64,000 nucleotides of DNA. It comes from Bradyrhizobiaceae bacterium (lineage in GTDB: Bacteria; Pseudomonadota; Alphaproteobacteria; Rhizobiales; Xanthobacteraceae). Position numbers and translations under genes: made by a program. Shown piece after piece: positions 25,882-41,180 of this stretch. The stretch's first letter is position 1. Every line of letters begins with the position of its first letter. Below the pieces are notes generated by a model. It did no database searches. It was not told the origin of the DNA and was given only the letters and a program-made list of their open reading frames with translations. Location of the stretch: contig CP078014.1 of the NCBI GenBank assembly GCA_020544565.1, positions 1,986,016 through 2,050,015 of the forward strand, written 5' to 3'.

Positions 25882-26634
25882 TTAAACCATGCTGAAGCCG
25901 CCGCTGATGCTGATCGTCTGGCCGGTGATCCATCCGCCGTGCCGGGATGCCAGCAACGTCACCATCGGCGCGACATCGGAGGGGAAACCCAGCCGACGGA
26001 GCGGATAAAGCTTCGTCAGCTTGTCGCGATTGGCATTGACCCAGGCGAGGTCGTGCGGCGTTTCGACCAGACCGAGGGAAATCGCATTGGCCGTGGTTCC
26101 GGAACGGCCAAGCTCGCGCGCCAGCGATTTCATCAAAGCGATGACGCCGCTGCGCGCGGCGGCCACGATCGCCAGACCGGATTCGCCGACACGGGACGAA
26201 TCACCCACCACAGCGATAATCCGTCCGTCTCCGGCCTTCTCCAGATGCGGCGCGGCGGCCTTGGACACATGGATTGCGCCGTAGAGACAGATATCGATCT
26301 GCTTCTTCCATTCCTCCGGCGTCGTATCCACGAAACGATTGCGCAGCGCCACGCCGGCATTGTTGACGACGATATTAAGCCCGCCGAAATCTGACACGAT
26401 CCTGGCGACCATGGCGTTCACTTCGTCAAAGTTGGCGACGTCCGCGTTATAGGCTTTCGCCTTGCCGCCGGCTTTCTCAATCTCGGCAACCACCGCCTCG
26501 GCCTTGTCGCGCGATCCATTGTAGTTGACCGCGACCGCGGCCCCCTCCGCAGCGAGGTTGAGCGCGATTTCCCTGCCAACATCGCGGCCCGCGCCGGTGA
26601 CCAGTGCAACCTTGCCGTTGAGACCCATATCCAT
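25882..26634 (-). CDS. SDR-family protein lacking the catalytic Tyr and Lys
   Basis: 250 residues. The nucleotide-binding part is normal (LVTGAGRDVGREIA, VVNNAGVALRNRF) and the C-terminus ends SISGGF, as in 3-oxoacyl-ACP reductase-like SDRs. The expected Y-x-x-x-K is V-A-A-A-R (Val157, Arg161, in the segment IVAAARSGVIALMKSLA), so ordinary dehydrogenase chemistry is doubtful. SDRs without this pair exist as regulators, lyases or scaffolds. It lies between the lactonase and the acyl-CoA synthetase in the putative lactone operon. Confidence 0.82.
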   Translation of the reverse strand: MDMGLNGKVALVTGAGRDVGREIALNLAAEGAAVAVNYNGSRDKAEAVVAEIEKAGGKAKAYNADVANFDEVNAMVARIVSDFGGLNIVVNNAGVALRNRFVDTTPEEWKKQIDICLYGAIHVSKAAAPHLEKAGDGRIIAVVGDSSRVGESGLAIVAAARSGVIALMKSLARELGRSGTTANAISLGLVETPHDLAWVNANRDKLTKLYPLRRLGFPSDVAPMVTLLASRHGGWITGQTISISGGFSMV

Positions 26635-26704: not shown

Positions 26705-27466
26705 TTATTCGTAAGCGTCCGCACCCTTTCGGAGAGCATCCCACTGCGCGCTGTCATGGCTGCAAATCACCGTCGCCCCGCCCTTCTCGATCCGTCGCAC
26801 TTCGGCAAACGACTGCAGGCATTGATCGGCATTCCATGTGTTCTTGGGAACGACGTCGCCATCAAGATTGGCGCGAACGCTGACGGCATCCGAGGTCAGC
26901 AGGAATTCGCCGCTGCGATCGAGGCGAACCAGCGCGCCGATCGTACCCGGCGTATGACCGGGCAAAGGCAGCAGCACGATCCGACCATCGCCGAACAGAT
27001 CGGTCTGCCGCTCGATTACTTTCATGGGAATGGGATGGTCCCAGTCCGCCGGGAAATAGCCGCCGTTGACGGCATCGGGCGCCTTGGCGGCTTCAAGCTC
27101 GCGGGCGTGAACGACGATCGTCGATTTCTTGAAAAACTCGTTGCAGCCGCAATGATCGGTGTGGAGGTGCGAGCACACGACGACATCGATATCGTCAGGA
27201 CCGAGGGCCAGCGCTTTCAGACCATTCAGCACATGCTCTCCGGGCGGCATGATCGGCGTCATGAACTTCGCCAAGCCGCCCCAACGCGGCTCCGGGTTCT
27301 CGGAAATCGTCGGATGGCACCCCGTATCGAACAGCACGTTGCCCTGCTTGTGGCGCATCAGAATGCAGGACACCGGAAGCTCGATGGTTTCACTGCGATC
27401 GGCATCGGGGAAATAGATGCTCTTCCGCATCCGAAGCCGGCCGCCCGACAAAACGTGCATCTTCAT
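26705..27466 (-). CDS. Metallo-beta-lactamase-fold lactonase (AttM/AiiA-like)
   Basis: 253 residues. The zinc-binding motif HLHTDH (His100, His102, Asp104, His105) is intact, and later ligands are seen in LPGHTPGTIG, LLTSDAV and VICSHD. The sequence and length fit the N-acyl-homoserine/gamma-butyrolactone lactonase group that includes AttM (BlcC). It hydrolyses a lactone ring to a hydroxy acid. A neighbouring Fe-alcohol dehydrogenase and SSADH could continue 4-hydroxybutyrate to succinic semialdehyde and succinate. Quorum-signal degradation is an alternative. Confidence 0.82.
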   Translation of the reverse strand: MKMHVLSGGRLRMRKSIYFPDADRSETIELPVSCILMRHKQGNVLFDTGCHPTISENPEPRWGGLAKFMTPIMPPGEHVLNGLKALALGPDDIDVVVCSHLHTDHCGCNEFFKKSTIVVHARELEAAKAPDAVNGGYFPADWDHPIPMKVIERQTDLFGDGRIVLLPLPGHTPGTIGALVRLDRSGEFLLTSDAVSVRANLDGDVVPKNTWNADQCLQSFAEVRRIEKGGATVICSHDSAQWDALRKGADAYE

Positions 27467-27477
27467 GACGGATTCCC

Positions 27478-28251
27478 TTATCTTCCCAGAAAAGCCGGCG
27501 GGCGCTTCTCGGCAAACGCCTGGCGACCTTCCCTGTAATCGTTGCTATCGGATGCATGATCGATGACGGCATCAGCCGCCGCGAGATCGAGCACGCCGGG
27601 CCCCATCGACAACCCGGTCAGGATCTGCTTGGCGCCGGCGACCGACAATGGGGCAAGTTCGGCAACCTGTTTGGCGAAGGCTTTCGCGGCGGCCAACGGA
27701 TCATCGGAGACGTGATCCACGAGTCCCATGCGGGTCGCGCTGTCCGCATCGAACCGCTCCGCAGCGTACAAAATCCGCTTCGCGTTGGTCAGCCCGACCA
27801 GAGCCAGCAACCGCTGGGTACTGCGCACCCCATAGACGATCGACAGTTTCGCCGCCGGAATCCCGATGGCGGTGGCGCTGTGGGCGTAACGGAAATCGCA
27901 CGCCATCGACAGATGGCATCCGCCACCCAGGCAATAACCTTCCAGAACCGCGATCACGACTTTCGGCGTATTCGCGATGGCCTCCGACGATGCATCAACC
28001 GCCACCTCATAGGCTTTGCTCTCCGCGATGTCGGAGCGCACCTTGCCGAATTCGGAAACGTCCGCGCCGACGCTGAAGTTCTTGCCGGCTCCGGTCAGAA
28101 TGATTCCACGAACCTGCGGATCGTTGCCGAGCCGTGTGAAGATCTCGGCTGTATCGCGCCACATCGCGAGCGTCATGGCGTTGCGCTCTGTGGGCCTGTT
28201 GAGCGTGACGATGGCGAGCCGATCTTCGATGGCGACATCAATATCAGGCAA
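27478..28251 (-). CDS. Crotonase-fold protein (enoyl-CoA hydratase/isomerase family), atypical
   Basis: 257 residues from a TTG at 28251 preceded by GGGAAGGA. The frame is open further upstream but that part overlaps the thioesterase gene and has no family similarity. GAGKNFSVGADVSEF and GGGCHLSMACDFRYAH are the crotonase segments. The two hydratase glutamates are replaced (His in GGGCH, Ala in IPAAKLSIVYG), as in the crotonase at 1513. The reaction is therefore uncertain. It overlaps the upstream thioesterase by 8 bp. Confidence 0.82.
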   Translation of the reverse strand: MPDIDVAIEDRLAIVTLNRPTERNAMTLAMWRDTAEIFTRLGNDPQVRGIILTGAGKNFSVGADVSEFGKVRSDIAESKAYEVAVDASSEAIANTPKVVIAVLEGYCLGGGCHLSMACDFRYAHSATAIGIPAAKLSIVYGVRSTQRLLALVGLTNAKRILYAAERFDADSATRMGLVDHVSDDPLAAAKAFAKQVAELAPLSVAGAKQILTGLSMGPGVLDLAAADAVIDHASDSNDYREGRQAFAEKRPPAFLGR

Positions 28252-28735
28252 TGGCTCGTCCTTCCCGTGGCCGTGATTGCAGTTCTGTCGTGGCAGGCCG
28301 CGGCATGAGCCGCGTCGCAACACTCCTCAATTCATCCGGCATGGCTGTCGGCCGCCCACTGTCGCGCTCGACATAGACATGGACGAAATGCCCCTGCGCC
28401 GACGCAACGTCTTCATCGTCCTTGAAGAGGCCGATCTCGTATCGAATGCTGGTGCTACCGATATGACCGACTCTCAATCCGACATTGATTTTCGAGGGAA
28501 AACCTATCGATCGGAAATAACGGCACGTGGTCTCCGCCACGAGACCGATGATCGGACTGTTTGCGACATCGAGAACGCCATGCTCGATCAGATACTGGTT
28601 CACGATCGTGTCGAAGAACGAGTAGTAGGTCGTATTGTTCATGTGACGGTAGGAGTCGTTATCCATCCAGCGCGTGGTCATCACCTGAAAATACAGGTAG
28701 GACTGGCGCGAATCGGCGGTGGGGCGCCCGTTCAC
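28244..28735 (-). CDS. Acyl-CoA thioesterase (4HBT hot-dog fold)
   Basis: 163 residues. The segment TRWMDNDSYRHMNNTTYYSFFDTIVNQYL is the hallmark of 4-hydroxybenzoyl-CoA thioesterase/FadM-like proteins, with the catalytic Asp in MDNDSYRHMNN. It hydrolyses an acyl-CoA, which could release the end product of the crotonase/ligase branch or rescue CoA. It overlaps the Fe-ADH gene by 4 bp and the crotonase gene by 8 bp, which indicates tight translational coupling. Confidence 0.85.
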   Translation of the reverse strand: MNGRPTADSRQSYLYFQVMTTRWMDNDSYRHMNNTTYYSFFDTIVNQYLIEHGVLDVANSPIIGLVAETTCRYFRSIGFPSKINVGLRVGHIGSTSIRYEIGLFKDDEDVASAQGHFVHVYVERDSGRPTAMPDELRSVATRLMPRPATTELQSRPREGRAIA

Positions 28736-29895
28736 AGCGACGCCTCGTAGATCGCGAATGCATCGTCCCGCACGACCTCACGCGGATTGTTGACCAGAAG
28801 CCGGGTCTGCTTCATGGCATCGTCCGCCAGCATGCCGAGATCCTTTGCTGCGATACCGACATCCCGCAAGCGCGTCGGCAAGCCCAGTTCGGTCGGAAGA
28901 GCTGACAGCATCTCAACCAGCGCCTTGGTGCGGTCAGCGCTCCCGCCTTTGGCGCTTGGAACAAGAATTTCGGCAAGCTCGCCGTAGTGATGTTCGGCCG
29001 CCGGCGCATTGAAGCGGATCACCTGAGGGAGAACCAGCGAGTTCGACAATCCATGCGGGACGTGGAAGCGGGCTCCCACCGGGTAAGCCAGCGCGTGAAC
29101 CGCCGCAACCGGCGCATTCGCGAACGCCATCCCGGCCAGCATCGAGCCGAGCAACATGTTGTGACGCGCCTCGCGATTACCGCCGTTGCGGCAAACCTCG
29201 TGGATGTTGCCCCCCAGCAGCCGCAGCGCATCGCGCGCCAGCGCATCCGACAGCGGATTCTTCAACCGCTTGCTGGTGTAAGCCTCGATGGCATGGACCA
29301 TCGCATCGATCCCGGTCGCGGCCGTGACCGCCGCGGGAAGCCCCAATGTCAACTCCGCATCGAGTACGGCCCAGTCCGGCAACAGAACGGGCGAGACCAC
29401 GCCTTTCTTCTCGCCCTCCCCCGTCGTCACGATCGAGATCGGGGTGACCTCCGAGCCGGTGCCGGCGGTCGTCGGAGCCAGAACCAGCGGTAGACGCGGT
29501 CCCTTCGCCATCCCGACACCGTAAATGTCATCGAGCTTCTCCTTGCCGACAGCAAGAAGGGCGACGAGTTTTGCGACGTCCATCGAACTGCCGCCGCCGA
29601 TGGAGACGACACCATCGACATTGGCATCCTTCGCCAGCTTGACCGCCGCATCGATCACATGAACCGGCGGGTCCGCCTCGACATCCGTGAACAGCGTGAC
29701 GGCGACACCGCTCTGCTGCAGTCCGTTCAAACCCGCCTTAAGAAGGCCCGCACCCTTCACGCCGGGATCGGTCACCATCAGGACGGACTTGCAGCCAAGC
29801 GCCTTGACCAACTCTCCAATTCGGGACGAGGAGCCGGGCTCCACCAGAATTGATTTCGTCGATTGGAAGACAAATCCCTGCACTGCGAACTCCAT
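28732..29895 (-). CDS. Iron-containing alcohol dehydrogenase
   Basis: 387 residues. The NAD-binding GGGSSMDVAKLVAL, APTTAGTGSEVTPISIV, ATGIDAMVHAIEAYTSK and VPHGLSNSLVLPQVIRFN (metal ligands) define the Fe-ADH superfamily. The closest functional parallel in context is the 4-hydroxybutyrate dehydrogenase BlcB/AttL, which works with a lactonase and an SSADH. It is the first gene of a seven-gene minus-strand operon and has a TTGACA-N17-TCTACT promoter overlapping the shared motif at 29992-30010. Confidence 0.88.
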   Translation of the reverse strand: MEFAVQGFVFQSTKSILVEPGSSSRIGELVKALGCKSVLMVTDPGVKGAGLLKAGLNGLQQSGVAVTLFTDVEADPPVHVIDAAVKLAKDANVDGVVSIGGGSSMDVAKLVALLAVGKEKLDDIYGVGMAKGPRLPLVLAPTTAGTGSEVTPISIVTTGEGEKKGVVSPVLLPDWAVLDAELTLGLPAAVTAATGIDAMVHAIEAYTSKRLKNPLSDALARDALRLLGGNIHEVCRNGGNREARHNMLLGSMLAGMAFANAPVAAVHALAYPVGARFHVPHGLSNSLVLPQVIRFNAPAAEHHYGELAEILVPSAKGGSADRTKALVEMLSALPTELGLPTRLRDVGIAAKDLGMLADDAMKQTRLLVNNPREVVRDDAFAIYEASL

Positions 29896-29991: not shown

Positions 29992-30028
29992 CTTGCATAA
30001 GTAGACTAATTTGACGGCGCGATGTCAA
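29992..30028 (-). promoter_or_regulatory. Promoter with shared regulon motif, site A (lactonase operon)
   Basis: On the minus strand the motif ATTAGTCTACTTATGCAAG occupies 30010-29992. TTGACA (30028-30023) and TCTACT (30005-30000) are spaced 17 bp, giving a plausible sigma70 promoter about 100 bp before the Fe-ADH start. The motif differs by one base from site B and overlaps the livM stop codon. Confidence 0.7.
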
Positions 30029-31043
30029 CTCGCTTCGAGGCTTTCCCGTCATGCGATAACAGCGTGCGCCGCGCCCGCGCAGCCTGAAAGGCGGCGGCGA
30101 CTTCACCGACGATGCCCCGGCGAAACAGCAGCACGCATGTCATGAAGATAAGCCCGATGATGATCGGAACCTTGGTGGACAGGTCGACCGACAGCGTCCC
30201 CAGTTGAATGACGCCAACGCCGGAGAGTTTGCTCTCCAGCGTCACCACCAGGATCGCGCCGATGATCGGCCCGAGCGGCGTGCCCAGTCCGCCGAGCAGA
30301 CACATCAAAATGACATTGCCGGATTGCGTCCAGTGCGCGTCCGGGAGGCCGGCGAAGCCGAGCGTCAGCGCCTTGACGCCTCCGGCAACACCCGCCGCCG
30401 CAGCCGACATGGAGAACGCCGAGAGCTTATAGGCCTGGACATCGTACCCGAGCGAAACAGCGCGCGGCTCATTGTCACGAATGGCGAGAAGAACCTGGCC
30501 GAACGGCGCTTCCATCAGGCGCTGGAACGCCCAGACGACGGCCACCATGACCGCGAGCACAAAGATGTACATCACGCGATCATCCGAAAGATCGATGATC
30601 CCGAACAGCGCCCGCCGCGGAATACGCTGAAGTCCGTCTTCGGCGCCGGTGAACGGCGCCTGCACGCAGAAGAAATAGACCATCTGGGCCAGCGCCAGCG
30701 TGATCATGGCGAAATAGATTCCCTGGCGGCGGATCGCCATGCCTCCCATCACCACGCCGAGGACCAGGCCGACGACAAGGCTGACGCCAAGGGCGAGTTC
30801 GGGCGTCGCCCCCCACTCCTTCGTGACATAGCCGGCGACGTAAGCGCCCATCCCGAAGAAGGCCGCATGGCCGATCGACAGCAGCCCGACGTTTCCCGTG
30901 AAGAAGTTGAACGCGACGGCGAACAGCGCCAGCGCCACACACTTCATCAGAAACTGGGCATAGAGCCCGGTGTACGGCGCGACGAAGCCGACCGCGAACA
31001 GGCCGAGCAGCAGAACCGTCGACGTTCTCACGGATTTTGTCAT
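30006..31043 (-). CDS. livM: ABC transporter permease LivM
   Basis: 345 residues from the ATG at 31043, which overlaps the livH end by 4 bp; the long upstream frame is the livH shadow. ALFAVAFNFFTGNVGLLSIGHAAFFGMGAYVAGYV is the LivM signature, with IRDNEPRAVSLGYDVQAYKLSAFSMSAAAAG as the ATPase-contacting loop and LGGLGTPLGPIIGA near the end. The C-terminal tail of about 40 residues is hydrophilic and basic. The last codons and stop lie in the promoter of the next operon. Confidence 0.9.
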   Translation of the reverse strand: MTKSVRTSTVLLLGLFAVGFVAPYTGLYAQFLMKCVALALFAVAFNFFTGNVGLLSIGHAAFFGMGAYVAGYVTKEWGATPELALGVSLVVGLVLGVVMGGMAIRRQGIYFAMITLALAQMVYFFCVQAPFTGAEDGLQRIPRRALFGIIDLSDDRVMYIFVLAVMVAVVWAFQRLMEAPFGQVLLAIRDNEPRAVSLGYDVQAYKLSAFSMSAAAAGVAGGVKALTLGFAGLPDAHWTQSGNVILMCLLGGLGTPLGPIIGAILVVTLESKLSGVGVIQLGTLSVDLSTKVPIIIGLIFMTCVLLFRRGIVGEVAAAFQAARARRTLLSHDGKASKRVDIAPSN

Positions 31044-31918
31044 GCTTCGCGCCCAAACAGACCGGCAGGGCGGATCAGAAGAATGATCGCCATGACGATG
31101 AAAACGATGGTCGATGAAATCTCGGGATAGAACACCTTGGACAGCCCCTCGATCACGCCGAGAGCGAGTCCTGTGGCGATCGCGCCGGCGGTGGAGCCGA
31201 GCCCACCAATGACGACGACGGCAAAGGTGATGATCAGGATATTGGAGCCCATCAGCGGCTGAACCTGATAGATCGGCGCCGCCAGCACCCCGGCAAATGC
31301 GGCGAGCGCGGCACCGAGCGCATAAACCAGGGTCACCATCAGCGGCACATTGATGCCCAGCGCCTGCACGATCCGCGCATTCTCGGTGCCGGCGCGCAGA
31401 TAAGAGCCGAGACGGGTCCGCTCGATCAGGAACCAGGTCACGATGCACACCAGCAGCGACATACCGACGATCCATACGCGATAGATCGGAAGCCTCATGA
31501 AGCCCAGATCGATCAACCCGCGCAGCAATGGAGGGGGCGGATACGACAGCCCCGCCGAGCCGTAGATATCGCGGAAGATGCCTTCCAGCACGAGGGCAAG
31601 CCCGAACGTGAACAGCAGCCCATACAGGTGATCGAGCCCGGACAGGCGGCGCAGCAGAAGGCGCTCGATCAACGCTCCGAACGCCCCGACGACGATCGGG
31701 ACGAGGATCAGCGACCACCAGTAGTTCACGCCAAACTTATGCATGGCGAGATAAACGCCGAACGCGCCCAGCATATAGAGCGCGCCATGCGCGAAGTTGA
31801 TGACGTTGAGAAGGCCGAAGATCAGCGCAAGGCCAAGGCTGAGAATGGCATAGAAAGACCCGTTGACGAGACCGATCGTGACCTGACCCAGCAACACCTG
31901 CAGAGGAATATCGAACAT
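31040..31918 (-). CDS. livH: ABC transporter permease LivH
   Basis: 292 residues from the ATG at 31918, preceded by GAGAGGCGAT; a TTG four codons upstream overlaps the livF stop and is less likely. NGSFYAILSLGLALIFGLLNVINFAHGALYMLGAF is a typical LivH N-terminus and VVIGGLGSTAGAIATGLALGVIEGL the conserved C-terminal loop. Works with livM, livF and livG of this cluster. Confidence 0.9.
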   Translation of the reverse strand: MFDIPLQVLLGQVTIGLVNGSFYAILSLGLALIFGLLNVINFAHGALYMLGAFGVYLAMHKFGVNYWWSLILVPIVVGAFGALIERLLLRRLSGLDHLYGLLFTFGLALVLEGIFRDIYGSAGLSYPPPPLLRGLIDLGFMRLPIYRVWIVGMSLLVCIVTWFLIERTRLGSYLRAGTENARIVQALGINVPLMVTLVYALGAALAAFAGVLAAPIYQVQPLMGSNILIITFAVVVIGGLGSTAGAIATGLALGVIEGLSKVFYPEISSTIVFIVMAIILLIRPAGLFGREA

Positions 31919-31926
31919 ATCGCCTC

Positions 31927-32657
<731 letters not shown>

Positions 32658-32661
<4 letters not shown>

Positions 32662-33449
32662 TGTTTCTTCTCCGCGCGCGACCGCGAACCGAGATAGGAC
32701 TCGATGACCTGCGGATCGCGCGACACGTCGTCATACGTCCCTTCGGCGATGATCTCCCCTCGCCGCAGCACACTGATGCGATCCGCGATGCGCGCCACCA
32801 TCTTCATATTGTGCTCGACCATCACGACAGTCCGGCCGATCGCCGCCTGCTTGATCAGCGACGTCACGCGATCGACGTCTTCGTGGCCCAATCCCTGTGT
32901 CGGCTCGTCGAGCAGCATCACCTTGGGCTCGGCGGCCAGTGTCGTCGCCAGTTCCAGCGCGCGCTTGCGCCCATAGGGCAGATCCCCCGCGAGCGTGTTC
33001 GCGAATGCGACCAGATCGACCTGGTTCAACAACTCATCGATCCGTGCCGAGACATCGCCAAGCCGCTTCCGCCCGCGCCAGAACGCCACCGGCGAAACGC
33101 ACGCGCGCTGAAGTGCCACCACGATGTTGTCGCTCACGCTCAGGCGCGGAAACACCGCTGAAATCTGGAAGGAACGCACCAATCCGCGACGGGCCAGCGC
33201 AGCCGGCCTTTCGTCCGTGACATCGATACCTTCAAGCAGGATCTGCCCCGACGACGGCACAAGAAACTTCGTGAGCAGGTTGAAGACCGTGGTCTTCCCC
33301 GCGCCATTGGGCCCGATCAAGGCATGGATCTCGCCGCGATGGACATCGAGATCGACACCGCCGACGGCCGTGTAGCCGCGAAACTCTTTTCGCAGCCCCC
33401 GCGCCTGGAGGACGACCTCTGTCGCCGGATGATGCGTCGCTGCAGGCAT
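32658..33449 (-). CDS. livG: ABC transporter ATPase LivG
   Basis: 263 residues from the ATG at 33449 directed by GGGAGGG; a start 12 codons earlier is open but lacks an SD. Walker A GPNGAGKTTVFN, LVRSFQISAVFPRLSVSDNI, the signature-equivalent LPYGRKRALELATTL and Walker B VMLLDEPTQGLGHED are intact. First gene of the minus-strand livGFHM transcript, divergent from the binding-protein gene at 33609. Confidence 0.9.
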
Positions 33450-33509
33450 CCCGTTTCCCTCCCATCGTCCCTTTTTGCGCCGCACCTGAATGAGTTTCGA
33501 GCAACCCTG

Positions 33510-33546
33510 TTGACAGCGTCATACCAAATTAGTCTAGTTATGCAAG
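33510..33546 (+). promoter_or_regulatory. Promoter with shared regulon motif, site B (binding protein)
   Basis: TTGACA (33510-33515) and TCTAGT (33533-33538) with a 17-bp spacer, followed by the SBP gene at 33609. ATTAGTCTAGTTATGCAAG (33528-33546) overlaps the -10 region and is nearly identical to sites A and C. It may also control the divergent livG. Confidence 0.7.
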
Positions 33547-33608
33547 CCTATATGCTGCGTCGGAACGACCAGCGACAGGTTTTTTTCGGAAGTGGACAGG
33601 AGGAACCA

Positions 33609-34820
33609 ATGAAAAGGACTGCAATTGCGCTTGCTACGACGGTCGCACTCGCGAGCCCTGCTTTTGCTCAAGTGAAGATTTCCGACGACGTGGTGCGGAT
33701 CGGGGTCATGACGGACATGTCCGGACAATTCTCCCACGAGGCGGGAGAGGGTTCGGTAACCGCGGTCAAAATGGCCGTCGAGGACTTCGGTGGAACGGTC
33801 CTCGGCAAACCGATCGAGGTCATCATCGCCGATCATCAGAACCGGAATGAAGTCGCCATCGCAAAAGCCAAGGAATGGTATGACATCGGCAAGGTCGACA
33901 TGATCGCCAACCTGATCAACTCCTCGATTGCGCTGGCTGTCACCAACGTCGCCCAGGAAAAGAACCGCATCGCCATTGTGAACGGCTCGGGATCGTCGCG
34001 GTTGACCGGCGACTCCTGCACGCCGAACAGCATCCACTACGCCTACGACACTTACGCTCTCGCCCAGGGCACCGGAAAGGCGCTGATCAAGGAAGGCCTA
34101 AATTCCTGGTACTTTCTGACCGCCGACTACGCATTCGGTCACGCCCTTGAAGGCGATACCGCCAATGTCGTGAAAGCCAACGGCGGCAAGGTGGCCGGAG
34201 CGATCCGCTACCCGATCGACACGCCGGACCACTCGTCGTTCCTGCTGCAAGCGCAGGCATCAAAAGCCAAGGTGGTCGCCGTGGCCGGTTCCGGCACCAC
34301 CTTCATCAACGCCGTCAAGTCCGCCAAGGACTTCGGCCTCACCGACGGCGGCAAGCAAAGCATTGCCGGCCTTCTGGTGTGGATCACCGATATCGATTCC
34401 ATGGGCCTCAATACGGCCCAGGGCCTGGTCCTGACCAACGGCTTCTACTGGGATCGCGACGACGAGACGCGCGCCTTTTCCAAGCGTTTCTTTGAACGCA
34501 TGAAGCGCATGCCGCATATGGGCGACGCCGGCGACTATTCGTCGACGATGCATTATCTCAACGCCATCAAGGCTGCCGGCACCGACGACGCCAAGACGGT
34601 GATGGCCAAGATGCGTGAGATGCCGGTGAACGACTTCTTCGCCAAGAACGGCCGTGTCCGCGAGGACGGCCGTTTCGTCCACGATATGTACGTCTACGAA
34701 GTCAAGAAGCCGTCCGAGTCGAAATATGCGTGGGACTATTACAAGCTGCGCGCTGTCATTCCGGGTGACGAGGCCTATCGCCCCCTCTCCGAAAGCAAGT
34801 GTCCGCTTGTAAAGAAGTAA
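33609..34820 (+). CDS. ABC transporter substrate-binding protein (Liv/HAAT family)
   Basis: 403 residues from the ATG at 33609 (SD GGAGGAACC). Signal peptide MKRTAIALATTVALASPAFA, then VRIGVMTDMSGQFSHEAGEGSVTAVKMAVEDFGGTVLGKPIEVIIADHQN, a type I periplasmic binding fold. The variant with MTDMSG and HQNR is common among binding proteins for aromatic or other organic compounds rather than leucine. It provides substrate recognition for the divergent livGFHM genes and belongs to the regulon marked by site B. Confidence 0.88.
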   Translation: MKRTAIALATTVALASPAFAQVKISDDVVRIGVMTDMSGQFSHEAGEGSVTAVKMAVEDFGGTVLGKPIEVIIADHQNRNEVAIAKAKEWYDIGKVDMIANLINSSIALAVTNVAQEKNRIAIVNGSGSSRLTGDSCTPNSIHYAYDTYALAQGTGKALIKEGLNSWYFLTADYAFGHALEGDTANVVKANGGKVAGAIRYPIDTPDHSSFLLQAQASKAKVVAVAGSGTTFINAVKSAKDFGLTDGGKQSIAGLLVWITDIDSMGLNTAQGLVLTNGFYWDRDDETRAFSKRFFERMKRMPHMGDAGDYSSTMHYLNAIKAAGTDDAKTVMAKMREMPVNDFFAKNGRVREDGRFVHDMYVYEVKKPSESKYAWDYYKLRAVIPGDEAYRPLSESKCPLVKK

Positions 34821-34847
34821 GTCGTTCTCCGGCTTTGAGAACTCCTT

Positions 34848-34902
34848 CGAATCCGAAGTTCGCTAGCAAGCATGCTTGCAAATGATGCGAGCTTCGGATT
34901 CG
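34848..34902. terminator. Nested palindrome between convergent genes
   Basis: Outer arms CGAATCCGAAG / CTTCGGATTCG (11 bp, perfect) enclose a second perfect palindrome GCAAGCATGCTTGC (34866-34879). It lies between the end of the binding-protein gene and the end of the HxlR gene, so a bidirectional terminator is likely. No strong T-tract is present. Confidence 0.6.
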
Positions 34903-34907
34903 CGACA

Positions 34908-35963
34908 CTAGACGCGGCCGGGCACCGCCCGGCTGCTTTTGCGCCCGCCGAATTGATCGGGATCGTAACGCATCCGATATTTCATGGCGAAGGCGTGGAT
35001 CGGCTTGCCACACCGGTCGCAAATGACCGTCGGGGTGAAAACCCGGCCACAGGCAGCGTGCTTCAACAGCATCGGCGGCTCGCCATTCGAGCGCCACCGG
35101 TCGCCCCACGCCATCATCATCATGAGCGGTCCGTGGAGATCAGCTCCCATCGGCGTCAGCACATATTCGAATCGCTCGGGAGCCGATTGATACTTTCGCT
35201 TCTTGAAGACACCACGCTCGACCAGACGGGCCAGCCGATCGGTCAGAATATTGGAGGCAATCCTCAATTCATTCTGGAACTGGTCAAATCGCGTGGCCCC
35301 GAAAAAAGCTTCGCGGATCATCAGAAAGCTCCAGCGATCCCCGATCACCTCGAGCGCGCGCGAAACCGAACTTGGACGGCCCCGCATGAAGTCATCGGCC
35401 GTGCGGCGTGTTCGGCGCGCAGCCGCCTCCCCCCGGATCACACCCGCGCCCGGCCCTTCAAGATAAGTGACCTCGCGGGCCGAAGTCTTCTTATGGCAAC
35501 ACGAGCAGGCAACAATAGGCTTGCTGACGCAATTGCAGTCTTCGTGAATGAGTTGCAACGGCCCCCGCGTGGGATCAAGCCAGCGATCACCGAACTGCAT
35601 CAGCGCCATGAATGTCGGATAGAGATCGATGCCCGATTTTGTGAGCTTGTACTCCACCCGGCTCGACGTATCCGAATAGCTGACCTGGCGCAGGATCTGC
35701 TCCTGCGTCAACCGCCGCAACCGATCCGTCAGCGTCGCACGGGAGATTTCGAGACCCGAGCGGTATTCCTCGAACCGCTTTGCTCCGAAGAACGCTTCGC
35801 GAATAACCAGAAAGGCCCACGCATCGGAAAGGATGCCGACGGTGCTTGCAATCGAGCACCTGCGCTCAAACTGACTTGAGGACTTGCTGTCAGCGTCGAC
35901 CGATACATCTGACTTTGAAGATCTGGCCGGCTTCTTTGGTTTTGTTACTGCCGCAGGCCGCAT
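34908..35963 (-). CDS. Tandem HxlR-type transcriptional regulator (two fused HTH modules)
   Basis: 351 residues from the ATG at 35963; in-frame GTG and TTG starts upstream cannot be excluded. Two homologous HxlR winged-helix modules are visible: residues about 35-135 (ILSDAWAFLVIREAFFGAKRFEEY) and about 197-297 (VIGDRWSFLMIREAFFGATRFDQF). Each is followed by a Cys-rich tail (Cys143, 145, 153, 155, 156; Cys305, 315, 318) that could bind a metal. Normal HxlR proteins are about 110-150 residues and act as dimers, so this is a covalent dimer. It sits between the transporter and the hydroxylase genes and is the best candidate regulator for the shared motif. Confidence 0.85.
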   Translation of the reverse strand: MRPAAVTKPKKPARSSKSDVSVDADSKSSSQFERRCSIASTVGILSDAWAFLVIREAFFGAKRFEEYRSGLEISRATLTDRLRRLTQEQILRQVSYSDTSSRVEYKLTKSGIDLYPTFMALMQFGDRWLDPTRGPLQLIHEDCNCVSKPIVACSCCHKKTSAREVTYLEGPGAGVIRGEAAARRTRRTADDFMRGRPSSVSRALEVIGDRWSFLMIREAFFGATRFDQFQNELRIASNILTDRLARLVERGVFKKRKYQSAPERFEYVLTPMGADLHGPLMMMMAWGDRWRSNGEPPMLLKHAACGRVFTPTVICDRCGKPIHAFAMKYRMRYDPDQFGGRKSSRAVPGRV

Positions 35964-36098
35964 GCTCCGACTCTGATCAATTGCCCTATCAGCCACTCCG
36001 AGGCTACATCCGCAGGGTCTCAAAACGATATTGAGCCATGTATACCAGTTGTTCAATCCCGAACAAGCGCATCAAACCATAAGCTCAGATCGCCCAGA

Positions 36099-38489
36099 TC
36101 ACCCGTTGTCTTTTTGAGTCCGCGCGGCTTCAACCAGCCGGAAGATCCGTTCCGGGGTCGCCGGCAACGTATCGATCTCGATTCCCAGCGGCGACAAGGC
36201 GTCCGAAACAGCGTTGGCGACAGCCGCCGGCGCACCGATCGTGCCGCCCTCGCCCATGCCGCGGAAGCCGCCGATCGTGTTGGGCAAATCCGCCTCGATA
36301 TGAACGATTCCGATGGATGGGATATTGGTGGCGACTGGAACGAGGTAGTCCGCGAGGCTGGCCGTCACGCACTGGCCCTGATCGTCATGGACGACCTCCT
36401 CAAGCAACGCCGCGCCAATGCCCTGCGCGACCGCGCCCTGAACCTGGCCATCGACGATCATCGGATTGATGATTCGTCCGCAATCCTCCGCCACAACGTA
36501 GCGCTTGACCGTGACGCCGTAGGTATCCGGGTCGATTTCCACCATGGCGAGATGGGTGGATGAGCAGGCCGTTCCAAGATAGGGGTCGTATGTTTCCGAC
36601 GCGACCAGATCCTCGCGCTGATCGTGCGGGATTGCGCCCATCTGGGAATAGACCGCGTTCGCGACCTCCTTGAACGTCATCGACACGTTGGAATTGCGCG
36701 CGCGAATGATGCCCCCCGCGGCTTCCAGCTCGTCGACGGGCTGTTGCATCAGATATGCGGCGGCCTTGAGAACCTTGGCCTTGACCACGTGCGATGCCTT
36801 GGTCGCGGCTCCTCCCCCCAGCACAGCGGACCGGCTGGCGTATGTTCCCGTGCTCATCGGCACCAGCGCGCTGTCGCCGTGCTGCACCTCGACATCTTCC
36901 ATCCTGCAGCCGAGTTCGTCCGCGATGATTTGCGCGAGCGTTGTCTCCAGTCCCTGACCATGAGACGAAATACCGAACGCGGCGGTAATGGCGCCCGTCG
37001 CGTCGATCCGGATCGTCGACGTTTCAGTGCCTGTATTGATCGGCATGCCCGGCGCCACGGAGATGCGCGAGCCGATCCCGGTCAGTTCGGCGTAGCTCGA
37101 CAGGCCGATGCCGACCCAGCGACCTTCGCTGCGCGCCTGATCCCGCTCGCGCACAAGATCCGGGTAGTTGACATAGTTGCACGCGCCTTCAAGGCACTCC
37201 AGGAATGCCGACTTGTCCCAGATGATGCCCGACGCGGTCCGGTAAGGAAACTCCTCGGAGCGGACCAGATTCCGGCGGCGCATTTCAGCGGGGTCGAGTC
37301 CGATCTTGCGCGCCGCCATGTCAATGAGGCGCTCCATCGCAAACGTCGATGACGGCCGGCCGACGCCGCGATAGGGGCCTGTCGGCGGCTTTGGCGTCAA
37401 CACGCCGCGAATGCGGCCGCGATAATGCTCCATCCGATACGGCCCCGGCAGGAAGCTGACGACCTGAACGGGTTCGAGCGCGCCGGTCCAGGGATAGATC
37501 GAGTAGGCGCCGATATCGCCGATCACGTCGGCGCGGAGCCCAAGCAGCCTGCCTTCCCGATCGACCGCAAGCTCCGCATCGATCAGTTCATCGAAGGCCT
37601 GACTGGTTGCCGACAAATCCTCGAGCCGATCGGACACATACTTGACCGGCCGCCCGAGTTTGCGGGCCAACACACAAACCAGCATTTCCTCGTGATAGAG
37701 CGATCCCTTGCCGCCGAAACTGCCGCCGACATCCGGGGCCACGACCCGAAGCCGGCTGCCCGGCAAATCCAGACATCCTGACAGCACATCGCGAATGACG
37801 CCGGGAATATTCGTCGACGAATGCAATGTCAGCGCCAGGCGGCGCCGATCCCATTCGGCCAGGTACGAGCGGTTCTCCATCGCCACGGCCGTCTTGCGCG
37901 TCATGCGAAGGACCGCTTTGACCGTCACCGGCGCTTCGGCGATGACCCTGTCGATGTCACCGCGCGCAAACTCGCGCGAGATGATGACATTCGTTCCGGC
38001 TTCTTCGTGAAGCAGCGGCGCATCATCGGCCACCGCATCCACCTGCCGGATTGCAACCGGCAACGGCTCATACGCGATGGAAATATGTTCGAGTGCATCC
38101 TCCGCCGCATAACGACTTTCCGCGAGCACGGCGACGACCGGCTCGCCGACGTAACGCACCTTGCCCCGGGCGAGCGGCCAGATCGGCGTCGCGTAGTAAT
38201 TTTTCATCTTCGACGTCGGCACCGCCGGCTTGACGTCGCCGTCGATATCCGTTGCGTCGAAAATCGCGACGACCCCCGGCACCGAAAACGCGTCGCCGAC
38301 ATCGATACTGCAAATGCGCGCATGCGGCTGATCGCTGCGTCGCAGCGCAACGTGGAGCGTTCCGGGCGGCGTCATGTCGTCGACATAGCGGCCGGTTCCG
38401 GTCAGAAGCCGCGGATCTTCCGTTCGCTTGATGCGCTGCCCCACCAGCTTGGGCCGCAGTTCAACCGCTGCGTTTTCAAACGTCTTCAT
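36099..38489 (-). CDS. Xanthine dehydrogenase-family molybdenum hydroxylase, large subunit (CoxL-like)
   Basis: 796 residues from the ATG at 38489, preceded by GGAGGCG. It carries the molybdopterin-cytosine-dinucleotide-type domains: PRLLTGTGRYVDDM...ALRRSDQPHARI at the N-terminus, DVGGSFGGKGSLYHEE, PTGPYRGVGRPSSTFAMER, and the catalytic Glu747 in GMGEGGTIGAP. The CO-dehydrogenase signature AYxCSFR is absent (GPYRGVGRP instead), so this is not a true CO dehydrogenase. Related enzymes hydroxylate N-heterocycles, aldehydes or caffeine. It forms a three-subunit enzyme with the two genes just upstream. Confidence 0.88.
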   Translation of the reverse strand: MKTFENAAVELRPKLVGQRIKRTEDPRLLTGTGRYVDDMTPPGTLHVALRRSDQPHARICSIDVGDAFSVPGVVAIFDATDIDGDVKPAVPTSKMKNYYATPIWPLARGKVRYVGEPVVAVLAESRYAAEDALEHISIAYEPLPVAIRQVDAVADDAPLLHEEAGTNVIISREFARGDIDRVIAEAPVTVKAVLRMTRKTAVAMENRSYLAEWDRRRLALTLHSSTNIPGVIRDVLSGCLDLPGSRLRVVAPDVGGSFGGKGSLYHEEMLVCVLARKLGRPVKYVSDRLEDLSATSQAFDELIDAELAVDREGRLLGLRADVIGDIGAYSIYPWTGALEPVQVVSFLPGPYRMEHYRGRIRGVLTPKPPTGPYRGVGRPSSTFAMERLIDMAARKIGLDPAEMRRRNLVRSEEFPYRTASGIIWDKSAFLECLEGACNYVNYPDLVRERDQARSEGRWVGIGLSSYAELTGIGSRISVAPGMPINTGTETSTIRIDATGAITAAFGISSHGQGLETTLAQIIADELGCRMEDVEVQHGDSALVPMSTGTYASRSAVLGGGAATKASHVVKAKVLKAAAYLMQQPVDELEAAGGIIRARNSNVSMTFKEVANAVYSQMGAIPHDQREDLVASETYDPYLGTACSSTHLAMVEIDPDTYGVTVKRYVVAEDCGRIINPMIVDGQVQGAVAQGIGAALLEEVVHDDQGQCVTASLADYLVPVATNIPSIGIVHIEADLPNTIGGFRGMGEGGTIGAPAAVANAVSDALSPLGIEIDTLPATPERIFRLVEAARTQKDNG

Positions 38490-38532
38490 CCGCGACACGC
38501 CTCCGCAAGGCAGCCCTTCAGCCAATGATACC

Positions 38533-39015
38533 TCACCGCAGCGGCCCTCTTTCGCGCGCCAGTTCACGCACCGCGTTGACGATGTGCTCGTAGCCGGTGC
38601 AACGACAGATATTTCCGGAAAGAGCTTCCCGAATTTCGTCATCGGTCTCGAGGCTGTGATGACGCAGCATATCGGTGATGGTCATGATGAACCCCGGTGT
38701 GCAGAAACCGCACTGAAGACCGTGATGATCGCGGAAAGCGCGCTGGATCCGCCCCAGGTCTTCGACGCTGCCCTGCCCTTCGACCGTTTCGATATCCGCT
38801 CCGTTGGTCTGGACCGCGAGCGTCAGGCACGAGCGCGCGCTGCGTCCATCCAGCAGCACCGTGCACGCGCCGCACACACCGTGCTCGCATCCGACATGCG
38901 TTCCGGTCAGGCCGATCTCGTGACGGAGAAAATCCGACAGCAGCATGCGCGGCTCGACGCGGCGCGTATAGGACAGGCCGTTGATCGTCACCGTGATGTC
39001 AACCTGTTTGTCCAT
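38533..39015 (-). CDS. Molybdenum hydroxylase iron-sulfur subunit (CoxS-like)
   Basis: 160 residues from the ATG at 39015, overlapping the stop of the FAD subunit (TGATG). Two [2Fe-2S] clusters are evident: a plant-type site Cys43, 48, 51, 63 (CEHGVCGACTVLLDG...SC) and a helical-bundle site Cys102, 105, 137, 139 (CGFCTPGFIM...GNICRCTGY). It shuttles electrons from the Mo centre to FAD. Gene order FAD-FeS-Mo on the minus strand is the common Cox M-S-L order. Confidence 0.92.
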   Translation of the reverse strand: MDKQVDITVTINGLSYTRRVEPRMLLSDFLRHEIGLTGTHVGCEHGVCGACTVLLDGRSARSCLTLAVQTNGADIETVEGQGSVEDLGRIQRAFRDHHGLQCGFCTPGFIMTITDMLRHHSLETDDEIREALSGNICRCTGYEHIVNAVRELARERGPLR

Positions 39016-39890
39016 CAGGCTGCCCTCGCATCCGCACGCGACCATGCATCCGACAATGCGCGACGAGACAGAGCGCCAGCCAGATGGCGCCGATAGTCCG
39101 CCGATCCATTGAGATCCGAATTCGGCGTGATCTGCGCACGCAACGCTTCGACCACCTCGTTGATCAGCGCATCGGACAATTCCCGACCATCGATCATCGC
39201 CTCCAGCTCCGGCATCCGCATCGGCATCTCCCCGACCCCCATGAGAGCAATCCGGGTGTCCGATGCGACGCCATCCCGTCGCGCCATGGTCACCGCCACC
39301 GCAGCGAGAGCATAGTCCCCGTGGCGCCTGGCGAATTCTTCAAAGGCCCAACCCGTCCCGATCGGGAGCGCATCGACCTCGATCTCCGTGACCATCTCGT
39401 CCGGTTCAAGAGACGTCACCAGCGAAGTCACAAAGAAATCCCGCGCTGCCACCACGCGCGCGCCTCTCTCAGAACTGACATGGACAAGCCCGTTCAGCAA
39501 CAACGTCATCATGGGCATCTCCGCCGCCGGATCGGCGTGACAGACGCTGCCGCAAAACGTCCCCCGGTTTCGAACCGTCAGATGCGCCACATGCTTCATC
39601 GCGTGGTGGAGGACGGGAATCCGGTCGGCAATCACGGCGTCCGTGGCCGTGACGCGATGGCGGACCAAAGCTCCCAATGCAAGCCGATCACCGCGCGGCT
39701 CGATGCGATCGAGGCCAGGAATCCGATTGATATCGACCAGGACGGATGGCTTCACCAGCCGGAAGTTCATCATCGGCATCAGACTCTGACCGCCGGCAAT
39801 GATCTTCCCGTCGCCACCGGCCTGAGCCAGCATCCGCACGGCGTGTTCGATGCTCTCCGCACGAACGTAGTCAAACGAGGCTGGCTTCAT
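39015..39890 (-). CDS. Molybdenum hydroxylase FAD-binding subunit (CoxM-like)
   Basis: 291 residues from the ATG at 39890; a TTG ten codons upstream is possible. KPASFDYVRAESIEHAVRMLAQ and the FAD motifs IIAGGQSLMPMMNFRL (AGGxS) and GTFCGSVCHADPAAEMP are typical, followed by the CO_deh_flav_C domain (DYALAAVAVTMARRDG). It passes electrons from the FeS subunit to an acceptor. First gene of the hydroxylase operon; the promoter region contains motif site C. Confidence 0.9.
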   Translation of the reverse strand: MKPASFDYVRAESIEHAVRMLAQAGGDGKIIAGGQSLMPMMNFRLVKPSVLVDINRIPGLDRIEPRGDRLALGALVRHRVTATDAVIADRIPVLHHAMKHVAHLTVRNRGTFCGSVCHADPAAEMPMMTLLLNGLVHVSSERGARVVAARDFFVTSLVTSLEPDEMVTEIEVDALPIGTGWAFEEFARRHGDYALAAVAVTMARRDGVASDTRIALMGVGEMPMRMPELEAMIDGRELSDALINEVVEALRAQITPNSDLNGSADYRRHLAGALSRRALSDAWSRADARAA

Positions 39891-39995
39891 AGCGACGCCC
39901 GATCCTGACTCACTCGTCAATGTGCAGTTCGCCGAGCTTCACAGTGCCCGACGCCATACCATCACAGAATGAGCCTCTATCATCAAGGATAGTGA

Positions 39996-40028
39996 CTTGC
40001 ATTACTGTACTAATATATGCGATGTCAA
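39996..40028 (-). promoter_or_regulatory. Shared regulon motif, site C (hydroxylase operon)
   Basis: On the minus strand ATTAGTACAGTAATGCAAG (40014-39996) has 3 mismatches in 19 to site B. TTGACATCGC (40028-40019) upstream is also shared with site A, but at a spacing shorter by 4 bases, so the exact -10 element is unclear. It lies about 105 bp upstream of coxM and on the other side upstream of the coxG-like gene. Confidence 0.6.
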
Positions 40029-40139: not shown

Positions 40140-40916
40140 ATGAAAATGACGGGACAACAGCAAATTCCGGCGAGTCGTGATGTCGTCTGGAAGGCTCTCA
40201 ACGATCCGGCGGTTCTTCAAGCCTGCATTCCCGGCTGTCAGGAGCTCGTCAAGCTCTCCGACACGCAGATGAACGCAACCGCGGTGATCAAGGTCGGCCC
40301 GGTCAGCGCGAAGTTTCAGGGCGCGGTCACCCTGTCCGATCTCGATCCGCCGAACGGCTATCGCATTGCAGGCGAAGGTCAGGGCGGTGTCGCCGGATTC
40401 GCCAAGGGCAACGCCGTCGTCCGGCTCGAAGCCGACGGCAACGCCACCCTCCTCCACTACGACGTGTCCGCGGAGATCGGCGGCAAGCTCTCGCAGCTCG
40501 GCGGCCGATTGATCGACGCGACGGCCCGGCAGATGTCGGCCGCGTTCTTCAAGCGCTTTGCGGAAGAAATCGCAAATCAGTCCGGCAACGGCCGCAACCC
40601 GCAGCCGCGGCCGGTGGCGGATCAAACGGCAGGACAAACGCCGCCAGCGGCAAACCCGCAACCGGCACGCCAAGGGCGTTCACCCGAGCCTGCCGCTGCC
40701 ACGTCCGGTCTGTTTGGAGGCAACGGCCTTGCCGGCCTGATCCTCCTTGCGCTCGTCATCGGCATCGGCTGGTACTTCCTGGGAGCCAACCTTCCCAAGC
40801 TCGTTCCAGTCGGCGGCAACCAAACGGTCTCTCCGGATTTCTTCAGTGCGGTTCTGCTCCTGATCGTCGCCGCGATCGGTTACCTGTTCGGCCGGCAACA
40901 AACCACCCGGCACTGA
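40140..40916 (+). CDS. CoxG-like SRPBCC protein with C-terminal membrane segments
   Basis: 258 residues from the ATG at 40140 (SD AGAGGAGA). The first 150 residues form a CoxG/SRPBCC domain (MTGQQQIPASRDVVWKALNDPAVLQACIPGCQEL). A Pro/Gln/Ala-rich linker follows, then two hydrophobic stretches (GLAGLILLALVIGIGWYFLGA and FFSAVLLLIVAAIGYLFG). CoxG-type proteins are associated with maturation or membrane anchoring of molybdenum hydroxylases, which fits its divergent position beside the hydroxylase operon. Confidence 0.85.
   Translation: MKMTGQQQIPASRDVVWKALNDPAVLQACIPGCQELVKLSDTQMNATAVIKVGPVSAKFQGAVTLSDLDPPNGYRIAGEGQGGVAGFAKGNAVVRLEADGNATLLHYDVSAEIGGKLSQLGGRLIDATARQMSAAFFKRFAEEIANQSGNGRNPQPRPVADQTAGQTPPAANPQPARQGRSPEPAAATSGLFGGNGLAGLILLALVIGIGWYFLGANLPKLVPVGGNQTVSPDFFSAVLLLIVAAIGYLFGRQQTTRH

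Positions 40917-41104: not shown

Positions 41105-41180
<76 letters not shown>

What the first reader, a model, noticed from the sequence alone, without database searches (positions are those of the whole stretch)
29992..40028. One 19-bp promoter motif shared by three transcription units of the lactone/hydroxylase cluster
ATTAGTCTACTTATGCAAG (30010-29992, minus), ATTAGTCTAGTTATGCAAG (33528-33546, plus) and ATTAGTACAGTAATGCAAG (40014-39996, minus) differ by 1-4 bases. At sites A and B the motif overlaps the -10 box of a TTGACA-N17 promoter, and at site C TTGACATCGC is also conserved. In each case it points to the start of a gene set: Fe-ADH operon, binding protein, hydroxylase operon. This defines a regulon with a likely operator. 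The unusual double HxlR protein encoded within the cluster is the obvious candidate regulator.
Basis: partly seen in the sequence, partly recalled or inferred. Interest (0 to 1): 0.75.

Follow-up and report, generated by a model that had tools for sequence, protein, structure and literature searches.

The report
Operator read by double-headed HxlR regulator
Three near-identical DNA sites probably switch a lactone-catabolism gene cluster, and comparison with related bacteria indicates that they are the lopsided docking site of one regulator built from two different DNA-reading heads fused in a single protein.

Summary
In detail: three 19-mers at the stated places, and no other copy (2 mismatches allowed) in the 4.13 Mb genome. 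In 391 family genomes the motif tracks the tandem-HxlR gene: 28 of 40 genomes with it, 6 of 351 without (one of the six carries a fragment of the gene); in the genus 16 of 16 against 0 of 13. A weight matrix finds sites in 42 of 44 cluster stretches despite rearranged gene order, and none in 17 lactonase loci lacking the regulator. The 19-mer sits at two distances from the -35 box and base 12 changes with the distance, so it is an operator, not merely a promoter. It reads AGTCTA-N5-GCAAGT. The right half matches a palindrome near a single-domain HxlR whose helix resembles domain 2. Tandem HxlRs with the same helix twice have palindromes (AGTTKC-N5-GMAACT) before their own gene. Likely mechanism: a one-chain, heterodimer-like repressor occluding three promoters. 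The cluster probably degrades gamma-butyrolactone or 4-hydroxybutyrate-type compounds. HxlR regulators are known; the tandem, asymmetric-operator version and its apparent helix-to-half-site code look new.

The parts
29992..30010 (-). Operator A (19-mer); core AGTCTA-N5-GCAAGT at 30007-29991; upstream of Fe-ADH operon, overlaps the end of livM
30023..30028 (-). TTGACA (-35) of promoter A, 12 bases upstream of the motif; -10 TCTACT inside the motif
33528..33546 (+). Operator B; core 33531-33547 (right hexamer GCAAGC here); between divergent livG and binding-protein genes
33510..33515 (+). TTGACA (-35) of promoter B, 12 bases upstream of the motif; -10 TCTAGT inside the motif
39996..40014 (-). 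Operator C; core AGTACA-N5-GCAAGT at 40011-39995; upstream of coxM-S-L-hxlR operon, divergent from coxG-like gene
40023..40028 (-). TTGACA (-35) of promoter C, only 8 bases upstream of the motif; -10 AGTAAT inside the motif
34908..35963 (-). Tandem HxlR regulator, 351 aa; two HxlR domains, each followed by a Cys-containing segment; recognition helices (assigned by comparison) EISRATLTDRLRRL and RIASNILTDRLARL
   Evidence: Pfam PF01638 in two stretches
36099..38495 (-). CoxL-like molybdenum hydroxylase large subunit
38533..39015 (-). CoxS-like 2Fe-2S subunit
39015..39890 (-). CoxM-like FAD subunit; first gene downstream of operator C
40140..40916 (+). CoxG-like protein, divergent from coxM
33609..34820 (+). 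Periplasmic binding protein downstream of operator B (weak matches to urea-type binding proteins only)
30006..33449 (-). livG, livF, livH, livM branched-chain-type ABC transporter genes, divergent from the binding protein (named from the translations; not run against family libraries)
28732..29895 (-). Fe-containing alcohol dehydrogenase (4-hydroxybutyrate-dehydrogenase-like, below curated cut-off); first gene after operator A
28244..28735 (-). 4HBT-type thioesterase
27478..28323 (-). Enoyl-CoA hydratase/isomerase family
26705..27466 (-). Metallo-beta-lactamase-fold lactonase, closest to AttM model (147 bits, cut-off 390)
25882..26634 (-). Short-chain dehydrogenase (no model above its cut-off)
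24295..25860 (-). AMP-forming acyl-CoA ligase
22821..24293 (-). NADP-dependent succinate-semialdehyde dehydrogenase, likely last gene of the operator-A operon
   Evidence: 847.7 bits against equivalog cut-off 828

Best explanation
The 19-mer is the operator of the tandem HxlR protein encoded in the same cluster. The protein carries two diverged HxlR winged-helix domains in one chain and acts as a built-in heterodimer. Domain 2 (helix IAsNIL) reads GCAAGT, domain 1 (helix sRATL) reads AGTCTA from the other strand, and 5 bp lie between the two hexamers. The site is therefore asymmetric. Because each operator contains the -10 element and begins 8-13 bp after TTGACA, bound protein should exclude RNA polymerase: it is most likely a repressor of three promoters (Fe-ADH...SSADH operon; binding protein, probably with the divergent liv genes; cox-hxlR operon, hence self-repression), lifted by a lactone, hydroxy acid or CoA-ester intermediate. 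Shown: site occurrence, genome specificity, co-occurrence, positional rules, half-site correspondences. Inferred: binding, which domain reads which half, repression, inducer.
For: (1) Only three copies in the genome, all in this cluster. (2) 391 family genomes: the motif at up to 1 mismatch is in 28 of 40 genomes with a tandem HxlR (E<=1e-80, limit set after seeing the list) and 6 of 351 without; Fisher p=1.3e-27; genus 16 of 16 against 0 of 13 (one of the 16, G282, a fragmentary genome, is counted through a 45%-identical tandem paralog). One of the six (G164) carries a truncated tandem gene on the same contig. The reversed-pattern control hit 4 genomes. (3) Weight-matrix sites >=20 bits in 42 of 44 cluster stretches, before FeADH, binding protein, coxM, ECH, 4HBT, SDR, livG or 4HbD-like genes. 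(4) Best score 12.0 bits or less in 17 fetched lactonase loci without a tandem HxlR; two of them (L140, L143) keep the same cox-lactonase-SDR core with upstream DNA. (5) Base 12 is A in 20 of 21 sites whose strong -35 box fixes the distance when that is 7-8 bp (the 21st: A at 12 bp), and T in 48 of 49 at 10-13 bp (the 49th: T at 6 bp): the operator is kept in two promoter registers. (6) The right half equals the half-site of the palindrome ACTTGC-N5-GCAAGT, found 2.4-4.6 kb from an orthologous single-domain HxlR with domain-2-like helix IAPNIL (read in one of them) in 5 of 6 genomes. (7) Tandem HxlRs with IARN[IV]L in both domains have AGTTKC-N5-GMAACT (>=11 of 12) before their own gene in 5 of 5 loci, the fifth found after the rule was set. 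(8) Out-of-family tandem HxlRs with R[AQ]TL/NIL helices: predicted sites in 4 of 5 loci. (9) The DNA in the B. subtilis HxlR crystal has ACT at the same distance from the dyad (my reading of the oligo given in PMC7835342, passages).
Against: No binding, footprint or expression data. Many compared loci are orthologous, so counts overstate independent events; the five single-HxlR palindromes are one orthologous event. In L179 and L180 the coxM-proximal site points away from coxM, so fixed orientation is not absolute. L184 (4.3 kb contig) has no site of 11 of 12 or better; L177 sites match only 10 of 12, a level met 14 times in 558 kb of control. The AGTTCA form used for L179 and L180 also occurs once at 12 of 12 in 267 kb of control, inside L139. 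The structure model of the tandem protein is poor (mean pLDDT 58), so the pseudo-dimer geometry is not shown. Paralogous tandem HxlRs of the MPR[SG]TL/IA[ST]NIL type lie beside the cluster in some relatives and might share the sites there.
Confidence: 0.85

Rival explanations
1. The tandem HxlR binds these sites but activates transcription, as B. subtilis HxlR does.
For: B. subtilis HxlR is described as a positive regulator (passages of PMC7835342).
Against: The sites contain the -10 element and lie downstream of a good TTGACA. Duplicated sites 22-23 bp apart extend towards the start region before the binding protein in ten distant clusters (the second copy in L101 scores only 16.6 bits). Both fit occlusion better.
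Confidence: 0.12
2. The operator is read by a different regulator that travels with the cluster, and the tandem HxlR is incidental.
For: Association is by co-occurrence and half-site grammar; binding was not measured.
Against: No other regulator was recognised among the cluster genes assigned in the window. The right half matches a palindrome near a single-domain HxlR, and operator symmetry follows the recognition helices of tandem HxlRs.
Confidence: 0.07
3. The motif is only an unusual promoter of this cluster, kept by descent, with no specific regulator.
For: It overlaps the -10 and follows TTGACA.
Against: The same 19-mer occurs in two registers relative to -35, is absent from the rest of the genome, and is absent from lactonase loci without the tandem HxlR.
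Confidence: 0.02

Closest known systems
HxlR/DUF24 family regulators (B. subtilis HxlR, YodB, HypR)
   Same: Pfam HxlR domain met in two stretches; solved relatives found by sequence; the B. subtilis HxlR crystal DNA has ACT 6.5-8.5 bp from the dyad, as A[CG]T at 6-8 bp here (distances are my own count).
   Different: Family members are described as binding DNA as dimers (PMC7835342 passages); here two diverged copies are fused in one chain and the operator is asymmetric. The sensing chemistry is unknown.
BlcR (AttJ) control of blcABC/attKLM in Agrobacterium (family and role recalled; search listing only)
   Same: A local regulator of lactonase, Fe-ADH and succinate-semialdehyde dehydrogenase genes.
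   Different: BlcR is of the IclR family (recalled); this cluster also has a Cox-type hydroxylase, acyl-CoA ligase and Liv transporter.
MarA/SoxS/Rob of the AraC family (recalled, no call)
   Same: One polypeptide with two DNA-reading motifs on an asymmetric, oriented site.
   Different: Unrelated fold and monomeric activators; here two winged-helix domains and a likely repressor.

Membership tests
HxlR family regulator | HxlR winged-helix domain above the curated cut-off | tested here: met
   PF01638, 144 bits against 20.8, two stretches
HxlR family regulator | Single domain acting as homodimer | tested here: not met
   Two domains in one 351-aa chain; oligomeric state not testable here
HxlR family regulator | Operator with half-sites in the HxlR register | tested here: met
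   Hexamer-N5-hexamer; A[CG]T 6-8 bp from the dyad, against 6.5-8.5 in the B. subtilis crystal oligo
HxlR family regulator | Direct binding to the operator | not testable with these tools
   Needs gel shift or footprint
attKLM/blcABC-type lactone catabolic operon | AttM-type lactonase | tested here: inconclusive
   Best NCBIfam model AttM, 147 bits, below the cut-off of 390
attKLM/blcABC-type lactone catabolic operon | 4-hydroxybutyrate dehydrogenase (Fe-ADH) | tested here: inconclusive
   Fe-ADH family certain; 4-hydroxybutyrate dehydrogenase model 257 of 500 bits; two other Fe-ADH models score higher
attKLM/blcABC-type lactone catabolic operon | Succinate-semialdehyde dehydrogenase | tested here: met
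   847.7 bits against 828
attKLM/blcABC-type lactone catabolic operon | IclR-type regulator | tested here: not met
   No IclR-type gene recognised among the cluster genes assigned; the regulator present is HxlR

The most novel reading that the evidence does not exclude
Tandem HxlR proteins form a class of single-chain, heterodimer-like repressors with a readable code. Each domain's recognition-helix motif sets one hexamer (IARNIL gives GMAACT, IA[SPT]NIL gives GCAAGT, xRATL gives TAGACT or TGAACT), always 5 bp apart, so a protein with equal domains has palindromic operators and one with unequal domains has asymmetric operators.
Probability: 0.6. Interest if true: 0.65.

Novelty: new variant of a known kind. 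Interest (0 to 1): 0.58.

Why it matters
HxlR-type proteins turned up in most genomes searched (352 of 391 had a match, mostly single-domain), and few have known operators (from general knowledge). If the correspondence holds, the operator of a tandem, and perhaps a single-domain, HxlR could be predicted from its recognition helices, and domain swaps would test it directly. It also shows how gene fusion can free a repressor from palindromic DNA. The regulon points to its own enzymes: sites not explained at first precede 4-hydroxybutyryl-CoA dehydratase-like genes, which hints at the cluster's chemistry.

Tried and rejected
Promoter-only reading: rejected because of the two -35 registers and absence without the regulator. 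Chance: rejected. The fourth window match (37809, 3 mismatches, inside coxL) was set aside. The five remaining motif genomes without a tandem HxlR (G045, G169, G292, G297, G357; one 1-mismatch hit each) are at the level of the reversed-pattern control (4 genomes) and were taken as chance; their surroundings were not read.

Structure prediction gave a poor model (mean pLDDT 58) and Foldseek found only weak matches to single HxlR domains (best E 1.1e-3); neither is used as evidence. A candidate operator for the own genome's second tandem HxlR (GGTTCA-N5-GGAAGT twice, about 6 kb away) is suggestive only. The MPR[SG]TL/IA[ST]NIL paralogs gave no operator of their own. For paralogs L120, L123, L127, L130, L132 and L133 I accepted no operator. 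Lactonase hits in G364, G383, G389, G266:C187 and G168:C13 were not fetched. Papers: searches returned none; one search listed 20 of 657, 25 of 84, 10 of 104, 15 of 94, 12 of 1,357, and no listed title or abstract opening describes a tandem HxlR; only passages of PMC7835342 were read. The library holds open-licence PMC papers only, so absence from print is not shown.
Full report
What is there. The three 19-mers are real and on the stated strands. They differ by 1, 3 and 4 bases. The shared pattern at up to 2 mismatches occurs nowhere else in the 4,127,363-base genome. The closest named relatives of the regulator come from Afipia. A and B have TTGACA 12 bases upstream, C has it 8 bases upstream.

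Who is nearby. B lies between the binding protein and divergent livGFHM. C precedes coxM-S-L, with the tandem HxlR gene 135 bases behind coxL on the same strand. No other regulator was recognised among the cluster genes assigned.

Does the motif follow the regulator? Of 391 family genomes, 34 have the motif at up to 1 mismatch and 40 have a tandem HxlR at E<=1e-80 (limit chosen after seeing the list); 28 have both. Fisher p is 1.3e-27. In the genus it is 16 of 16 against 0 of 13; one of the 16 (G282, a fragmentary genome) is counted through a 45%-identical tandem paralog. The reversed-pattern control hit 4 genomes. Of the 6 motif genomes without a counted tandem HxlR, G164 has a truncated one on the same short contig. 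The 12 tandem genomes without a 1-mismatch hit all show a site of 27 bits or more in the fetched cluster stretch by weight matrix. The matrix was trained on 57 distinct sites of up to 2 mismatches in the same loci, so part of this is circular; seven loci that added no training site (L016, L098, L100, L104, L105, L117, L118) still score 22-37 bits.

Clusters differ, motif persists. In 44 stretches (window; L079-L118, that is 40 stretches from 38 genomes; L016, L018, L019) gene order varies widely, yet 42 carry at least one site of 20 bits or more, 82 in all. The two without are L018 (different recognition helices) and L019 (partial match to the regulator). Best reversed-matrix scores ran from -8.0 to 8.9 bits. 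Downstream genes include FeADH, binding protein, coxM, ECH, 4HBT, SDR and livG. Seventeen lactonase loci without a tandem HxlR in the fetched stretch score 12.0 bits at best. Some of these are only distantly similar clusters, four are in genomes that have a tandem HxlR elsewhere (L138, L139, L154, L155), and a few further lactonase hits were not fetched. L140 and L143 keep the same cox-lactonase-SDR core and its upstream DNA and are the cleanest comparison.

Operator, not promoter. Of 82 sites, 70 have a TTGACA-like box (5 of 6 or better) upstream in the same orientation. Base 12 is A in 20 sites at 7-8 bases distance and one at 12; it is T in 48 sites at 10-13 bases and one at 6. The -10 is then TCTAnT (positions 6-11) or AnTAAT (positions 9-14); -10 assignments are mine. 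The whole 19-mer is kept in both registers, so promoter function alone cannot explain it. These sites are partly orthologous, so the p value (2.7e-15) overstates independence.

Anatomy. The site is AGTCTA-N5-GCAAGT, with a dyad at position 12 and matching outer bases T2 and A22. The genus palindrome ACTTGC-N5-GCAAGT (6 of 29 genomes) lies 2.4-4.6 kb from an orthologous single-domain HxlR in 5 of 6; the sixth contig is 8.6 kb and shows none. These five are one orthologous event. That HxlR's helix, read in the G243 copy (IAPNIL), resembles domain 2 (IASNIL), not domain 1 (SRATL). Tandem HxlRs with IARN[IV]L in both domains (L018, L124, L128, L129, and L185 found later) have AGTTKC-N5-GMAACT at 11 or 12 of 12 bases before their own gene in 5 of 5 (in L128 the site ends 8 bases before the likely start codon); a control of 267,208 bases has none at 11 or more, another of 717,460 bases has 8, both strands counted. 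Half-sites lie in one common register, and the DNA in B. subtilis HxlR's crystal (passages of PMC7835342) has ACT at the same distance by my count.

Test outside the family. Order and class searches (387 and 385 genomes) gave new tandem HxlRs. Those with R[AQ]TL/NIL helices had predicted sites in 4 of 5 loci: L177 (two at 10 of 12 near ECH, plus one inside SDR taken as chance), L178 (12 of 12), L179 and L180 (AGTTCA form, 12 and 11 of 12); L184, a 4.3 kb contig, had nothing better than 10 of 12. Controls: the AGTCTA form has 14 matches at 10 of 12 and none at 11 or more in 558,352 bases; the AGTTCA form has one at 12 of 12 in 267,208 bases. In L179 and L180 the site near coxM points away from it. 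L186 has a mixed site, AGTCTC-N5-GCAAGT, before its own gene; its helices were read afterwards.

Mechanism. The operator contains the -10, and ten distant clusters have two sites 22-23 bases apart before the binding-protein gene (the second copy in L101 scores 16.6 bits). I therefore read the protein as a repressor of its own and the other operons, lifted by a pathway intermediate. Binding, repression and inducer are inferred.

Chemistry. Sites precede a 4-hydroxybutyryl-CoA dehydratase/vinylacetyl-CoA isomerase-like gene in L083, L092 and L151, and seven further stretches carry such a gene (L094, L098, L103, L111, L112, L114, L115). L083 and L151 show no FeADH in the stretch fetched, L092 has both; against a simple exchange, L089 and L090 show no FeADH and their genomes G188 and G205 no such dehydratase either. 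With lactonase, Fe-ADH and SSADH this points to gamma-butyrolactone or 4-hydroxybutyrate-type substrates.

Verdict. The finding is right and stronger than stated; the kind (HxlR control) is known, while the one-chain asymmetric version was not found in the searches made.

Noticed in passing
L119 (own genome C1:3637532-3638482) with sites at L119 16311 and 16558: A second tandem HxlR (36% identical) in the same genome; the 17-mer GGTTCATTTATGGAAGT occurs twice, divergently, about 6 kb away and may be its operator.
   Followed up: partly
L083 3512-5011, L092 7473-8945, L151 10234-11754: 4-hydroxybutyryl-CoA dehydratase-like genes carry the same operator; L083 and L151 show no Fe-ADH in the stretch fetched, L092 has both: possibly two 4-hydroxybutyrate routes under one regulator (G188 and G205 seem to have neither).
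   Followed up: partly
L122 about 7177 (minus): A motif copy (AGTTCA form) lies at the start of a methyl-accepting chemotaxis protein gene, perhaps chemotaxis towards the substrate.
   Followed up: no
L163 9920, L164 9964, L166 9919, L167 9934, L168 10374: Palindrome ACTTGC-N5-GCAAGT close to enoyl-CoA-hydratase-family genes, 2.4-4.6 kb from a single-domain HxlR: a likely separate HxlR regulon.
   Followed up: partly
L098, L100, L103, L104, L110, L111, L112, L114, L115: Two operators in tandem, 22-23 bp apart, before the binding-protein gene, with GCATGT or GCTAGT in place of GCAAGT.
   Followed up: partly
window 41105-41180: tRNA-Lys gene just beyond the coxG-like end of the cluster; the tandem HxlR is absent from 13 of 29 genus genomes, so a mobile origin is possible.
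   Followed up: no
L179 15462, L180 11167: Operator beside coxM points the opposite way, an exception to the usual orientation.
   Followed up: no
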